In this document: piece after piece, positions 4,867 to 30,744 of the stretch | Layout: the number at the start of each line of letters is the position of its first letter | Position numbering within the stretch: position 1 is the first letter of the stretch | Assembly (NCBI RefSeq): GCF_034531395.1 | Contig: NZ_JARVCO010000010.1 | Span: 434,001 to 498,000, forward strand | Length of the DNA: 64,000 nt | From: Pontiella agarivorans | GTDB taxonomy: Bacteria; Verrucomicrobiota; Kiritimatiellia; Kiritimatiellales; Pontiellaceae | Reading direction: 5' to 3' | Notes under the pieces: generated by a model | Databases searched by the model: none | What the model saw: only the letters and a program-made list of their open reading frames with translations | What the model was told of the DNA's origin: nothing | Translations under genes and position numbers: made by a program

Positions 4867-5880
4867 TTAGGATTTGTTTTCGTTTTCGTCGTCACTTCCA
4901 GCAATGGATTCGCGCATGGAGGTGTCGGCCGAGATGTTCTGCATACGATAGAAATCCATGACGCCGAGATTGCCCTTGCGGAACGCTTCGGCCATGGCCA
5001 GCGGAACTTCGGCCTGGGCTTCAATCACTTTGGCCTGCATTTCCTGTACGCGGGCGCGCATTTCCTGCTCAGCGGCGATGGCCATCGCTTTGCGGCCTTC
5101 AGCCTCAGCCTGGCGCATAATCTTGTCGGCATCGGCGCGGTCGGTTTCCAGTTTTGCCCCGACGTTGGCAATCTGGCCGACGCCGGCAACAGATACGTCG
5201 GCGATATCGATCGAAACAATTTCGAAGGCGGTCTGGGCATCGAGTCCGGATTCGAGCACCTTGCGGCTGATGTGGTCGGGATTTTCGAGCACATCTTTAT
5301 AGGAATTCATTGAGCCGATGGCCGAGACGATCCCCTGGCCGACCCGGGCAATGATGGTGGATTCCGTGGCACCGCCGACGAGGCGGTCGAGATTGGTACG
5401 TACAGTAACGCGTGCTTTCACGAGCAGGCGGATACCGTCTTTGGCGACGGCGTCGAGCATGGCGCCGGAGGTGGATTCAGAGTCGGGGCAGTTGATGACC
5501 TTCGGGTTGACGGAGGTCTGTACGGCATCGACAATGTTACGGCCGGCCAGGTCGATGGCGGCTGCCTGCTGAAATTGAAGATCGATGTTGGCTTTATCGG
5601 CGGCGATCATGGCGCGCACGACGTTCTGCATGGAGCCGCCGGCAAGGTAGTGGGCTTCGAGCATGCCGGTGCCGATATCCAGGCCGGCTTTGACCGCGGA
5701 AATGTAGGTGAGGACCACCTGGTTCGGCGGCACACGGCGCAGTTTCATGCCGATCAGATCGCGGATGCGGACCGGGGCTTCGGCGAAGAGTGCACGAACC
5801 CACAGGTTGATGACGGAAACAGCCAGTGCAAAAAAGACCAGCAGGAACAGAATCAGCGGTATGAGAATCACATAGATCAT
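4867..5880 (-). CDS. floA: Flotillin-like membrane-microdomain scaffold FloA
   Basis: 337 residues, the normal length for FloA (YqfA/UPF0365). An N-terminal hydrophobic hairpin (2-27) anchors the protein to the membrane; the SPFH domain follows ([23 protein letters not shown], then [16 protein letters not shown]), then an Ala/Glu-rich coiled coil ([23 protein letters not shown]...). FloA organises functional membrane microdomains. The start overlaps the stop of the upstream bactofilin-like gene by 4 bp (ATGA), and nfeD lies before that, the usual nfeD-floA association with an extra gene inserted. Confidence 0.95.
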
Positions 5881-7061
5881 TTTTCATTCTCCTCGGGGTT
5901 GTAGTTTTCGTCTCTCAGCTTCTGAAGTTTATGTAAATCGGACGGCACCTGAAGAATCAGCCGCCGCTTTTCAATGAGAGCGATTATAAAGGATCCCATT
6001 CCCAGCAGCAAGACGATGATCTGTACAGGAATTCCAATGATGGGAAAAACGGCTGTGCCATAAATCACCGCCAGACCGGCCGAAACCGCGCCGATGACTT
6101 TGCCGAGGGAGTTCTGCGCTTTTTTGAGAATCAGGTTCCCGATGACCAGGGCGAGGAGAATGCGGCTAAGATATACCATTGCGGCCCACGAGCCGAGCAG
6201 GAGCATGCCGAGCGGAACTCCGATGAGTGATGAAAAACTCATGAGTCCGAAAAGGGGCAGCCCAAGTGAGGCCATCAGTCCTACCAGAATACATTTTCCC
6301 GGCGACCGTTTAATCAGCTGTGTCGACATGGCGGTGGTCATTGGAAACAGCGTGAGGAAGGGAATGCCGACAAGGATCGCCGCCACAAAACTGATCAGAA
6401 TTTTTTTCAGCCGGCCGGCATCGAACAGCTCCGGTTCGGGCGGGGTGGACACAGAGCCGCCAATCACATCGCCGTCGAGAAACAGTTTTTTGGGTGCACT
6501 GTATTCAAAGTCGCCTTCAATCCGGGCTCCTTGGGCAAAGACGATATCCTGTGCCCGAACAGAGACATTGCCGAGAATGGTTCCGGCAAAGGTGACCGTC
6601 TGTGCCGATACGTCGACATTGCCCTCAATATGCCCTTCCTGCACGATGCTCATGGCCCCGTAAATGTGGGCATTTCCATGAATATAGGCATTGGTGCCGA
6701 GGACAATGGTATTTCCGGCAGCCAGCAGATTGCCCGCAATTCCACCATCGACTTTGATGGTCGGAGAATAGATACGCAGGTTTCGTTCACAGCTGCCGGT
6801 CTGTTCAATGGCGGTAAGTGTGGCCGCGAGGACGTTGCCCTGATAGATGCCGGCGAGCTGCAGGGGGGCGGCGGTTCCAATGAATAAATCATTTCCAAAA
6901 GTACCCGACACATCGGCCTGATCAGCATAAACCCACTGTTCGTTTTCGACTGAAGTGCCGAGACTGACGGCATACATATTGGTGGAGATCCATGGAATTG
7001 CGGCCTGTGCCTGCAGGGCCGCGCAAAGCACGAGAGAGGAGAAAAATGGTTTTAATGGCAT
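5877..7061 (-). CDS. Bactofilin-like beta-roll protein with C-terminal membrane domain
   Basis: 394 residues. A signal peptide (1-20, cleavage near AQA-AI) precedes a repetitive region to about residue 205 whose short strands ([65 protein letters not shown]) have the periodicity of bactofilin/polymer-forming repeats. Four or more membrane helices follow (about 220-355) and a charged cytoplasmic tail. It sits between nfeD and floA, spaced 1 bp and overlapped 4 bp, so the three are almost certainly one operon. An extracytoplasmic beta-roll on a membrane base would suit a scaffold joined to the flotillin. Confidence 0.85.
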
Positions 7062-27466: not shown

Positions 27467-27489
27467 TTTTTTAAAAAAGGAGGTTCAGG

Positions 27490-29001
27490 ATGAGTGATTC
27501 CGGTGATTTCAAACCGCCCGGAGCACGGGCGAATGTTGCGCTGTTGGCATCGTTGCCGGTGCTGATCGGTGGTGGGCTTGCGGCGCTGTTTATTTTTGTC
27601 TGGTTTTTCTGCCGGATCGAACCGGGGGCCGGCGAGATTGCGGTGCTGATTCGCAAGACGGGGGAAGATCTTCCGCCCGGTCAGGTGATTGCGCTGGATG
27701 AAAGACAGAAAGGGATTCAGCTGGAGGTGCTTCCGGAGGGGCGTTATTTCCGGAACCCGTATACCTGGGGCTGGAGCAGGCATCGGATTCTGGATGTGCC
27801 GGCCGGTAAACTGGGGGTCATCACCCGGCTCTACGGCCGGGAACTTCCGCCCGGGAAAATCATGGCCGGGGAAGGGGAGAAAGGCATTATGGAAGAGATT
27901 TACCGGCCCGGTAAATATCGCGTGAACCCCTATGCCTATAAAGTCCACACCTTCGATGCCATCAATATCAAACCCGGGTATGTCGGTGTGGTTACGGCAC
28001 TGACCGGCCGTGATGTGCTGAACAATGATCTGCCGGCGGATAAGCGGAACAGCTTTATGGTGGAAAGCGGGCTTAAAGGCGTGGCCGGTGAACTGCTGCC
28101 GCCGGGGACCCATTACCTGAATCCCTATATGTATAATTCGGTTGAAGTGGATCTGCGCAGTCAGCGGTTCGATATGTCGGGTTCGGATGTCATCAGTTTT
28201 CTGACGCTGGACGGATTTACGGTGACGGTTGAGGGCTACATTGAATTCGGAATCCAGCGTGGGGAGGCGGCCCTGCTGACTCATCGGGTCGGCGATATGG
28301 ATGACATCATTAAAAAGCTGATTCTTCCCCGGGCCCGCGGCTTCAGCCGGATCGAGGGCAGCAAGCATCCGGCGGTGAATTTTATTGTGGGGGAAACGCG
28401 CCAGAAATTTCAGAACGACCTCGAAGAGCACCTTCGTTCCAGGTCGAAAGGCTGGGGCGTGGATATTAAAGCCGTCGGCGTGCGTAAAGTGATTGTTCCG
28501 GATGAAATTGCCTCGATCAACCGTGATCGCGAACTGGCGGTGCAGGAGGCGGCCAAATATGAACAGCAGATTATTCAGGCCAAATCCAAAGCGGAGCTGA
28601 CCAAGCAGGAGATGCTGGCGATTCAGAATCGGGAAAAGGTGGAGGCCGATACCAAGCGTATTCGCGCGGTGATTGATGCAGAACAGGACCAGAGCGTGCG
28701 GTTGATTGCCGCACAGAAGGAACTGGATGTGGCGAAGGTTGAATATGAGGCGGCACAGTTTCAGGCCGATGCCATTCTGCTGACGGCCGACGGGGAAAAG
28801 GATGCGATTACGGCGCGGAATGAGGCGGAGGCTTCGGTGCTCGGAAACCGGGTGAATGCTTTGGGTTCAGGTCGTGCGTTTGCGCAGTATACGTTGTATG
28901 AAAAGCTGGCTCCGAATATTCTTTCGGTGCTCAGTTCGGATTCGGAAAAGGGGCTGGGCGGCATCTTCAGCACCTACGCAGAGCAGGGAGGTGCGGAATG
29001 A
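27490..29001 (+). CDS. SPFH/band-7 protein with three N-terminal tandem repeats (A)
   Basis: 503 residues. A membrane helix (20-41) is followed by three tandem repeats of about 58-64 residues (43-102, 103-160, 161-224), each reading roughly [IV]xPGxxGVITxxxGxxLPPGxI...KGI...LxPGxYxxNPYxY. Next come an SPFH domain (about 226-360: FLTLDGFTVTVEGYIEFGI... GVRKVIVPDEIASINRDREL) and a long coiled coil to about 450 (KYEQQIIQAKSKAELTKQEMLAIQNREK). SPFH proteins form large membrane-bound rings. The next gene, an SPFH paralogue with the same repeats, overlaps by ATGA. The repeats-SPFH-helix order resembles major vault protein, a structural analogy only. Confidence 0.9.
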   Translation: MSDSGDFKPPGARANVALLASLPVLIGGGLAALFIFVWFFCRIEPGAGEIAVLIRKTGEDLPPGQVIALDERQKGIQLEVLPEGRYFRNPYTWGWSRHRILDVPAGKLGVITRLYGRELPPGKIMAGEGEKGIMEEIYRPGKYRVNPYAYKVHTFDAINIKPGYVGVVTALTGRDVLNNDLPADKRNSFMVESGLKGVAGELLPPGTHYLNPYMYNSVEVDLRSQRFDMSGSDVISFLTLDGFTVTVEGYIEFGIQRGEAALLTHRVGDMDDIIKKLILPRARGFSRIEGSKHPAVNFIVGETRQKFQNDLEEHLRSRSKGWGVDIKAVGVRKVIVPDEIASINRDRELAVQEAAKYEQQIIQAKSKAELTKQEMLAIQNREKVEADTKRIRAVIDAEQDQSVRLIAAQKELDVAKVEYEAAQFQADAILLTADGEKDAITARNEAEASVLGNRVNALGSGRAFAQYTLYEKLAPNILSVLSSDSEKGLGGIFSTYAEQGGAE

Positions 29002-30710
29002 AAATTTCAGGGAAAGGAATTACAGGACTGATCGGCAGCCTGATTTTTATTATCGGGGGAATTGCGATCATGTTTATCTGGGGCTTCTGCCGCTTTTATG
29101 TGGGGCCGAATGAAATGGCGATCATCACGGCAAAAGTGGGTGAATCGCTGGAGCCCGGTCAGATTCTGGCGAAACCGGGACAGAAAGGGATTCAGGAAGA
29201 ACCGCTGGGTGAAGGCCGTCATTTCCGTTTTCCGCTTTTTTATGAGTGGGAGATTGAAGAAGTCATCATCATTGATCCCGGCAAGGTCGGAATTGTGACG
29301 TCCAAGGTGGGTGAAAAACTGTCCACGGGAGAATTTATTGCGGAACGCGGCCAGAAAGGGATCTGGCGGAATGTGCTGGGGCCCGGCAAATACCGGATGA
29401 ACCCCTATGGGTACAATGTTGAGATTGTCGATGCCATCAGTATTCCGATCGGGTATGCCGGCGTCATCACCTCGCGTTCGGGCGGTCAGGCACCGTCGGG
29501 CCAATTTGCGGGGAACGGTCAGAAGGGTGTACGCAAGGATGTGCTGCAGCCGGGGCTCTATTATGTCAATCCGCAGGCCTATAAAGTGGATGTGCTTGAA
29601 GTCGGTATCAACCAGGTTTCCCTGCTTGGTCAGGACGGTAGTAAAGTGGTGACGAAGGCGCGCCAGCTGGGCCAGAATCAGGCGTTGAATGTGCTGCAAA
29701 GCAATATGCTCGAAAAGCAGGAGCAGAAACGGGCGGACTATTTCAGTAAACGTGCGCGTTCTTTCCTCCCCCCGAAAAGAGGGCAGGAGGTGAACTTTGC
29801 AGCTGGAAAAAAAGTGAAACAGATTGCACCTGCATCGTTGGATGAAGGGGAAATCAATCTGGCCGAACTGGTCAGTTTCCCCTCGCGCGACGGATTTGAA
29901 ATCAGCCTGGATATGACGCTGGAGTTTGAGCTGGATCCCGGCGATATCGCCGGAATTTACCGGCGTTACGGTGATCTGCCGGCCGTAGTGGACAAAATCA
30001 TTATGCCGCAGATCACGTCGATTTCACGCAACAAGGGATCGGAGTACCGGGCCAAGGACTTTATTGTGGGCGAAGGCCGCGAGAAATTTCAGGACGATCT
30101 GACGGAGTCGCTGGAGCTGGAACTGGGCGAAAAAGACATCCGCGTTTACAATGCACTGATCCGTCATGTTGAAGTTCCGGACGAGATTCGCGCACCGATT
30201 CAGCAGGCGAGTATTGCGGTGGAGCAGGACCTGACCAATAAGGAGCGGCAGAATACTGCGCGCAAAGAGGCGCAGCTGAATACCGAGCTTTCGCTGATTC
30301 AGCAGCGCGGCGAGCAGGTGATGCAGGAGACTGAAAAGCTGAAAGCCGAAATTGCCGCCGATCTGCAGAAGCAGGTGGCGACCATTCAGGCCGAAACCCT
30401 TAAAAAAGAAGCCGAGGTCCGCAAAGCCACCGCGGCAATCAATGCCGACAAAGTGCGTGTGCTCGGGCAGGCCGAGGCCACGGCACTGGAAAAAGTGGAT
30501 GGCGAAAAAGCCAAAGGGCTGCAGCTGAAAACTGCCGCGTTTAATGATTCGCTGGCCTATTCACAATGGATCTTTGCCGACCGTCTGAATCCGGAAATGA
30601 AAATTAATATCATTCATGCCGGTGAAGGAACGCTTTGGACCGATCTTGAAAAAACCGGTTTTGCTGAACTCGGCGGAGCCGAGTTGCTGAAAACCGGAAA
30701 AAAACAATAG
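28998..30710 (+). CDS. SPFH/band-7 protein with three N-terminal tandem repeats (B)
   Basis: 570 residues. Membrane helix at 9-30; tandem repeats at about 34-92, 93-149 and 150-205 (each with a GQKGI/V core and LGPGKYRMNPYGY-like end). Unlike its partner it has an insertion of about 85 residues before the SPFH domain, including QKRADYFSKRARSFLPPKRG. The SPFH core contains VSFPSRDGFEISLDMTLEFEL and RHVEVPDEIRAPIQQASIA, then a coiled coil and a C-terminal ALEKVDGEKAKGLQLKTAAFN. The start overlaps the stop of gene A by 4 bp, so the two are coupled and probably assemble as a hetero-oligomer. Confidence 0.9.
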   Translation: MKISGKGITGLIGSLIFIIGGIAIMFIWGFCRFYVGPNEMAIITAKVGESLEPGQILAKPGQKGIQEEPLGEGRHFRFPLFYEWEIEEVIIIDPGKVGIVTSKVGEKLSTGEFIAERGQKGIWRNVLGPGKYRMNPYGYNVEIVDAISIPIGYAGVITSRSGGQAPSGQFAGNGQKGVRKDVLQPGLYYVNPQAYKVDVLEVGINQVSLLGQDGSKVVTKARQLGQNQALNVLQSNMLEKQEQKRADYFSKRARSFLPPKRGQEVNFAAGKKVKQIAPASLDEGEINLAELVSFPSRDGFEISLDMTLEFELDPGDIAGIYRRYGDLPAVVDKIIMPQITSISRNKGSEYRAKDFIVGEGREKFQDDLTESLELELGEKDIRVYNALIRHVEVPDEIRAPIQQASIAVEQDLTNKERQNTARKEAQLNTELSLIQQRGEQVMQETEKLKAEIAADLQKQVATIQAETLKKEAEVRKATAAINADKVRVLGQAEATALEKVDGEKAKGLQLKTAAFNDSLAYSQWIFADRLNPEMKINIIHAGEGTLWTDLEKTGFAELGGAELLKTGKKQ

Positions 30711-30718
30711 TTCGGGCA

Positions 30719-30744
30719 GACTGGGCCGGTGCGCCGGCTCAGTC
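30719..30744. terminator. GC-rich hairpin between convergent genes
   Basis: GACTGGGCCGG-TGCG-CCGGCTCAGTC forms a long stem 9 bases after the second SPFH gene and overlapping the last codons of the convergent zinc-ribbon gene. It probably ends transcription from the SPFH operon, though no long T-run follows. Confidence 0.55.

What the first reader, a model, noticed from the sequence alone, without database searches (positions are those of the whole stretch)
27490..30710. Coupled pair of SPFH proteins with three tandem N-terminal repeats, vault-like in layout
Both products have a membrane helix, three repeats of about 58 residues with a KGI...LxPGxYxxNPYxY core, an SPFH domain and a long coiled coil. 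The genes overlap by ATGA. Major vault protein has the same order: tandem repeats, SPFH-like shoulder, long cap helix. The two paralogues, one with an 85-residue insert, could build a hetero-oligomeric membrane cage. The window also carries a separate FloA system.
Basis: partly seen in the sequence, partly recalled or inferred. Interest (0 to 1): 0.75.

Follow-up and report, generated by a model that had tools for sequence, protein, structure and literature searches.

The report
Bacterial membrane cage with vault-like repeats
Two always-paired bacterial genes encode membrane-anchored ring-forming proteins whose lower wall is built from repeats that, by predicted fold, look most like those of the eukaryotic vault particle, so a trait described as unique to vaults also appears in bacteria, though the function is still untested.

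Summary
Gene A (27490-29001) and gene B (28998-30710) overlap by ATGA. Each product has one N-terminal membrane helix, three ~57-residue repeats, an SPFH domain and a ~120-residue helix. One correction: the third repeat is the start of the SPFH domain, so there are two extra units. In an AlphaFold2 model of the repeats of A, the 14 best matches among 350,542 PDB chains are all major vault protein (MVP), over the whole array; other SPFH proteins match one repeat only. No sequence method finds MVP similarity, so this is fold resemblance, not shown homology. The pair occurs in PVC bacteria, sulfate reducers and Competibacteraceae. B adjoins A in 80 of 81 loci, neighbours are not conserved, and coiled-coil length is constant (120 in 81 A, 121 in 76 B). 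This fits a hetero-oligomeric dome of the HflK/C type, probably periplasmic, raised on two vault-like storeys. Replacement of HflK/C is unlikely: 21 of 21 proteobacterial carriers also have HflK. SPFH relatives with four or more repeats occur in Verrucomicrobiota, Rhizobium, Paraburkholderia and Streptomyces. A closed vault is not supported. Verdict: a new variant of the SPFH cage family; function inferred only.

The parts
27477..27483 (+). Shine-Dalgarno-like AAGGAGG in front of gene A
   Evidence: Sequence read
27490..29001 (+). Gene A, repeat-SPFH protein, 503 aa
27535..27609 (+). A: N-terminal membrane helix (residues 16-40)
   Evidence: helix in the AF2 model; N-tail charge mean +2.3 against -0.04 after the helix over 81 loci suggests N-in, C-out
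27622..27792 (+). A: repeat 1 (residues 45-101), MVP-like fold
   Evidence: repeat HMM 82.0 bits; Foldseek
27796..27966 (+). A: repeat 2 (residues 103-159), MVP-like fold
   Evidence: 81.8 bits
27967..28152 (+). [quoted passage not shown]
   Evidence: 70.0 bits; Band_7 starts at residue 159; found by the repeat 1+2 HMM at 1.2e-11
27964..28590 (+). A: SPFH/Band_7 domain (residues 159-367)
   Evidence: PF01145 E=4.7e-22
28501..28863 (+). A: long helix CC1 (residues 338-458)
   Evidence: AF2; motif-to-motif length 120 in all 81 loci
28870..28971 (+). A: C-terminal cap segment (residues 461-494)
   Evidence: AF2
28998..30710 (+). Gene B, repeat-SPFH paralogue, 570 aa, start overlaps stop of A (ATGA)
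29025..29087 (+). B: N-terminal membrane helix (about residues 10-30)
   Evidence: hydrophobic stretch after MKxxxK in the sequence
29100..29267 (+). B: repeat 1 (residues 35-90)
   Evidence: 74.0 bits
29271..29441 (+). B: repeat 2 (residues 92-148)
   Evidence: 88.4 bits
29442..29603 (+). B: repeat 3 / start of SPFH domain (residues 149-202)
   Evidence: 66.9 bits
29610..29876 (+). B: insert inside the SPFH domain (residues 205-293), conserved first half, variable second half
29439..30272 (+). B: SPFH/Band_7 domain with insert (residues 148-425)
   Evidence: PF01145 E=2.6e-18
30174..30536 (+). B: long helix CC1 (residues 393-513)
   Evidence: 121 residues in all 76 loci
30615..30647 (+). B: conserved C-terminal motif HAGEGTLWTDL (residues 540-550)
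   Evidence: near-invariant in alignments A2 and A4
30719..30744 (+). Strong hairpin after gene B, between convergent genes; possible terminator
   Evidence: 86-nt region folds at -41.4 kcal/mol, z=-5.65

Best explanation
A and B are two SPFH subunits that co-assemble, probably alternating, into one ring-shaped dome anchored in the inner membrane by their N-terminal helices, with the body of the dome most likely on the periplasmic side as in HflK/C. From the membrane upward the wall would be: membrane helix, two vault-like beta-repeat storeys, SPFH ring, a CC1 helix wall, and a C-terminal cap. The two storeys make the chamber taller than in HflK/C. The dome would work passively, by enclosing a patch of membrane and sequestering, sorting or shielding membrane proteins with large periplasmic parts. 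If the published relation between CC1 length and copy number (y = 0.1782x + 10.22, PMC12624060) holds, about 120 residues gives about 32 subunits, or 16 A/B pairs. Shown here: anatomy, pairing, fold resemblance and length constancy. Inferred: hetero-oligomer, side of the membrane, copy number and function.
For: Both proteins share architecture and the Band_7 domain. B lies directly after A in 80 of 81 loci, mostly with a 4-base overlap (72 of 81); the one exception has B on another contig. A and B distances correlate at r=0.92 with equal means. CC1 is exactly 120 residues in 81 A and 121 in 76 B across several phyla, while the B insert varies from 80 to 123. Repeat-region model pLDDT 89.5, pTM 0.78; its best 14 PDB matches are all MVP (E 4.8e-3 to 0.2, probability 0.89-1.00, mostly 187-197 columns). 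Full-length A matches erlin, prohibitin, HflK/C and MVP with E about 1e-11. In the viral library, which shows no MVP hit, the best matches are SPFH proteins over about one repeat. N-tails carry positive charge. No conserved neighbours, so the pair looks self-sufficient.
Against: No complex was predicted: only single chains of A could be modelled. Foldseek E-values for the repeats alone are weak in absolute terms and TM-scores are 0.39-0.50. The topology signal is modest for B (+1.3 against +0.6). Strict pairing also fits two subunits that merely act in one pathway. Pair distances correlate partly because the two genes travel together. Nothing ties the pair to a client protein or phenotype.
Confidence: 0.58

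Rival explanations
1. An ordinary two-gene band-7 scaffold whose N-terminal repeats are local duplications of the first SPFH segment. The likeness to MVP arises because MVP repeats are the same kind of element, duplicated independently; it says nothing about vaults.
For: Repeat 3 belongs to Band_7 and repeats 1-2 are detectably related to it. Single repeats match SPFH proteins in PDB and BFVD. No sequence similarity to MVP repeats: hhalign probability under 1%, like shuffles; PSSM score reached by 7 of 100 shuffles. No Pfam Vault match in 54 repeat regions.
Against: The full array matches MVP before any other solved structure. The order repeats-SPFH-helix is the same as in MVP.
Confidence: 0.25
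2. The pair replaces HflK/HflC as regulator of the FtsH protease.
For: In 241 genomes of the phylum, canonical HflK (31 genomes) and the pair (51) overlap in one genome, 6.6 expected, hypergeometric P=0.004 without correction for kinship; 0 overlaps in 58 close relatives, P=0.015. The own genome has no HflK above cut-off.
Against: All 21 proteobacterial carriers examined also have HflK above cut-off. No ftsH gene nearby.
Confidence: 0.1
3. A true prokaryotic vault or direct ancestor of MVP: a half-vault fixed to a membrane.
For: Fold and domain order. Relatives with four or more repeats exist. Eukaryotic vaults were recently seen on membranes (PMC13100048).
Against: No MVP sequence signal. Transmembrane anchor, two different subunits, and only two extra repeats. 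The vault meets the membrane at its shoulder, in inverted orientation (PMC13100048). The tree cannot place MVP (branch 7.4).
Confidence: 0.07

Closest known systems
HflK/HflC (TIGR01933 and partner), 24-subunit periplasmic dome on FtsH
   Same: Two adjacent SPFH paralogues with one N-terminal membrane helix each, SPFH domain, helix wall and cap; probably the same topology
   Different: Two extra beta repeats before SPFH, a 75-90 residue insert in B, longer CC1, below the HflK cut-off, and both systems coexist in proteobacterial carriers
Major vault protein (vault particle)
   Same: Predicted repeat fold and the order repeats - SPFH-like shoulder - long helix
   Different: MVP has nine repeats, no membrane helix, one subunit type, and closes by end-to-end pairing of two half-cages; no detectable sequence similarity
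Hinderhofer subfamily SPFH11a/b (PMC2636767)
   Same: The other prokaryotic SPFH pair described as always adjacent and probably a duplication; present in Deltaproteobacteria and Planctomycetes
Prohibitin, erlin, stomatin, flotillin and QmcA cages
   Same: SPFH domain and helix wall; top full-length fold matches with MVP
   Different: They match only one repeat; no tandem array
Four-or-more-repeat 'flotillin family' proteins (Rhizobium leguminosarum, Paraburkholderia phymatum, Streptomyces clavuligerus, Verrucomicrobiota)
   Same: Membrane-proximal tandem repeats of the same HMM, then SPFH
   Different: Single genes, more repeats, flotillin-like C-termini, separate group in the SPFH tree

Membership tests
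SPFH / Band_7 superfamily | Band_7 domain over the curated cut-off | tested here: met
   A 79.3 bits, B 67.2 bits, cut-off 23.6
SPFH / Band_7 superfamily | SPFH fold followed by long helix | tested here: met
   Foldseek matches of A to erlin, prohibitin, stomatin and HflK/C
SPFH / Band_7 superfamily | Ring or cage assembly | not testable with these tools
   Only single chains could be modelled
HflK/HflC | Match to TIGR01933 above cut-off (HflK) | tested here: not met
   No match over the cut-off in the own genome; its only hit is the QmcA-like gene at 95 bits
HflK/HflC | Adjacent paralogue pair with N-terminal membrane helix | tested here: met
HflK/HflC | Binds FtsH | not testable with these tools
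   needs pull-down
Major vault protein | Pfam Vault repeat models | tested here: not met
   No Vault match at E<=10 in 54 repeat regions or in 9 longer relatives
Major vault protein | Repeat array with MVP-repeat fold | tested here: met
   14 best PDB matches are MVP over the array; predicted model, TM 0.39-0.50
Major vault protein | No membrane anchor | tested here: not met
   helix 16-40 in A
Major vault protein | Closed 78-subunit barrel | not testable with these tools
   needs cryo-EM
FloA / flotillin | FloA Pfam model or NCBIfam flotillin model | tested here: not met
   A and B match only Band_7 in Pfam and no NCBIfam model over cut-off
SPFH11a/b of Hinderhofer et al. | Adjacent pair, 11b without coiled coil | tested here: inconclusive
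   Pairing fits, the helix in B does not; supplementary lists not available

The most novel reading that the evidence does not exclude
Bacteria build membrane-planted half-vaults: SPFH cages whose lower wall is a tandem array homologous to the MVP repeats, with two extra repeats in the A/B pair and more in single-gene relatives. The vault would then be an elaboration of a bacterial repeat-SPFH cage that lost its anchor and closed end to end.
Probability: 0.25. Interest if true: 0.9.

Novelty: new variant of a known kind. Interest (0 to 1): 0.68.

Why it matters
Recent papers call the MVP domains unique to the vault (PMC13100048) and its purpose mysterious (PMC12624060). Bacterial proteins with the same predicted repeat fold in front of an SPFH domain give a place to look for the origin of the vault wall and a culturable system in which to study what such storeys do. 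They also add a dome type with an extended lower wall to the SPFH family and show that a widespread array in bacterial SPFH proteins is not annotated in Pfam.

Tried and rejected
Sequence-level link to MVP: hmmscan, hhalign and a PSSM scan with shuffles, all without significant signal; two hmmsearch attempts against MVP returned no hits because of option settings or reporting (one search failed, empty) and are not used. Replacement of HflK/C: suggested by mutual exclusion inside the phylum, rejected as a general rule. Lipoprotein reading of the Cys after the membrane helix: rejected, because W replaces it in several A relatives and the preceding residue is F. Conserved gene neighbours as a clue to function: none. 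Phage origin: no relatives in viral contigs. Known defence models: A and B match none. SPFH tree: A, B and the multi-repeat proteins form separate groups, but MVP and HflK/C sit on very long branches and cannot be placed. Plasmid search found only distant 22% matches for A.

Full report
Observation. Two ORFs of 503 and 570 codons lie at 27490-29001 and 28998-30710 and overlap by ATGA. The first has a Shine-Dalgarno-like AAGGAGG at 27477-27483. A strong hairpin follows the second gene (z=-5.65). Both products match only PF01145 Band_7 in Pfam. A repeat HMM built from 54 aligned relatives finds three units in each protein with 67-88 bits; an HMM of repeats 1 and 2 alone finds repeat 3 at 1.2e-11 (A) and 9e-15 (B). 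Since Band_7 begins at residue 159 in A and 148 in B, the third repeat is the first part of the SPFH domain. The extra material is two repeats, which are thus copies of the first SPFH segment.

Distribution. A profile search of one genome per species found 203 relatives; the best 80 were kept. They come from Pontiellaceae and other Kiritimatiellota, Verrucomicrobia, Lentisphaerae, Planctomycetes, Desulfobulbaceae and other sulfate reducers (including Desulfopila aestuarii DSM 18488), and Competibacteraceae. In 241 genomes of the window's phylum about 51 carry the pair (counted from the table); in the family of Desulfopila 7 of 60 do. Desulfobulbaceae copies are 73-78% identical to the window protein, as high as within the genus, which suggests transfer of the whole operon. 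B directly follows A in 80 of 81 loci (two of these B genes are split and two run off the contig); in the exception B is on another contig of the same genome. No other neighbour is conserved.

Anatomy and constraint. The full-length AF2 model of A (pLDDT 83) shows a membrane helix 16-40, beta repeats, SPFH, a helix 338-458 and a cap helix. The helix between fixed motifs is exactly 120 residues in all 81 A sequences and 121 in all 76 B sequences, while the insert in B varies from 80 to 123. Such constancy is expected if A and B share one ring wall. With the published regression of copy number on CC1 length (PMC12624060) this gives about 32 subunits; that is an estimate, since my motif boundaries may differ from the authors'. 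In known heteromeric SPFH cages the two C-termini differ in conformation (PMC12624060); A and B likewise have different conserved C-termini (GLGGIF and HAGEGTLWTDL). N-tail charge exceeds the charge after the membrane helix, clearly in A (+2.3 against -0.04) and weakly in B (+1.3 against +0.6), which favours a periplasmic body.

Fold. The repeats alone (A 40-228; pLDDT 89.5, pTM 0.78) were compared with 350,542 PDB chains. Ranks 1-14 are all MVP (E 4.8e-3 to 0.2, mostly 187-197 columns, TM 0.39-0.50). Ranks 15-29 are all SPFH proteins over 69-91 columns, that is about one repeat, with E 0.29 or more; the first unrelated protein is at rank 30. The full-length model matches erlin, prohibitin, HflK/C, stomatin and, over more than 500 columns, MVP. 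In the viral library the best matches are SPFH proteins over about one repeat. So each repeat looks like the beginning of an SPFH domain, and the tandem array looks like MVP. Sequence comparison does not support homology to MVP: no Vault model in Pfam, hhalign probability under 1% as for shuffles, PSSM score matched by 7 of 100 shuffles.

Wider class. The repeat profile also found single-gene SPFH proteins of about 510-725 residues in the phylum. Several have three detectable repeats (L119, L127, L128), others four (L116-L118, L121, L122) or four to five partial hits (L120, L123-L126). Proteins of this kind are on plasmids of Rhizobium leguminosarum, Paraburkholderia phymatum and Streptomyces clavuligerus, annotated only as flotillin family or SPFH proteins. 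In an SPFH-domain tree they form a group apart from A and B; deep placement is unreliable.

Function. Architecture places the pair with SPFH domes. HflK/C replacement was tested: mutual exclusion holds in the phylum (1 overlap, 6.6 expected, P=0.004 without correction for kinship) but 21 of 21 proteobacterial carriers have both. I therefore commit to a self-sufficient two-subunit membrane dome with an extended lower wall, enclosing a membrane patch and its proteins. That step is inference by analogy with HflK/C, prohibitin, erlin and stomatin.

Known or new. The 2009 survey of prokaryotic SPFH proteins names 12 subfamilies and does not mention repeats in its text; its SPFH11a/b is an adjacent pair, but 11b is said to lack the coiled coil (PMC2636767). 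A 2026 paper calls MVP domains unique to the vault (PMC13100048). My literature searches covered only open-licence PubMed Central papers and found no description of vault-like repeats in bacterial SPFH proteins; absence there is not proof of novelty.

Noticed in passing
window 4867-5880 (-) and 5877-7061 (-): A FloA gene (PF12127, 2.4e-143) is overlapped by an upstream gene with a bactofilin domain (5e-10), a possible flotillin-cytoskeleton coupling.
   Followed up: no
L138:1223-5225 (Streptomyces clavuligerus plasmid pF1D18A): A four-repeat SPFH gene lies directly downstream of two overlapping TIR-domain genes; the larger TIR protein matches several defence-system models.
   Followed up: partly
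L116-L128; L137, L139: Single-gene SPFH proteins with three to five N-terminal repeats and flotillin-like C-termini, unannotated upstream of Band_7 in Pfam.
   Followed up: partly
G000 C12:209722-210234 (L035 6206-7571): The only other Band_7 gene of the genome is a QmcA-like protein next to an NfeD-like gene.
   Followed up: partly
G045, G046, G048, G049, G050, G054, G057 (e.g. G046:C31:44455-47290): Clusters of three neighbouring HflK-like SPFH frames, distinct from HflK/C, seen in the HflK search.
   Followed up: no
L072 and L085: Gene B is split into two frames in these assemblies, by frameshift or sequencing error.
   Followed up: no
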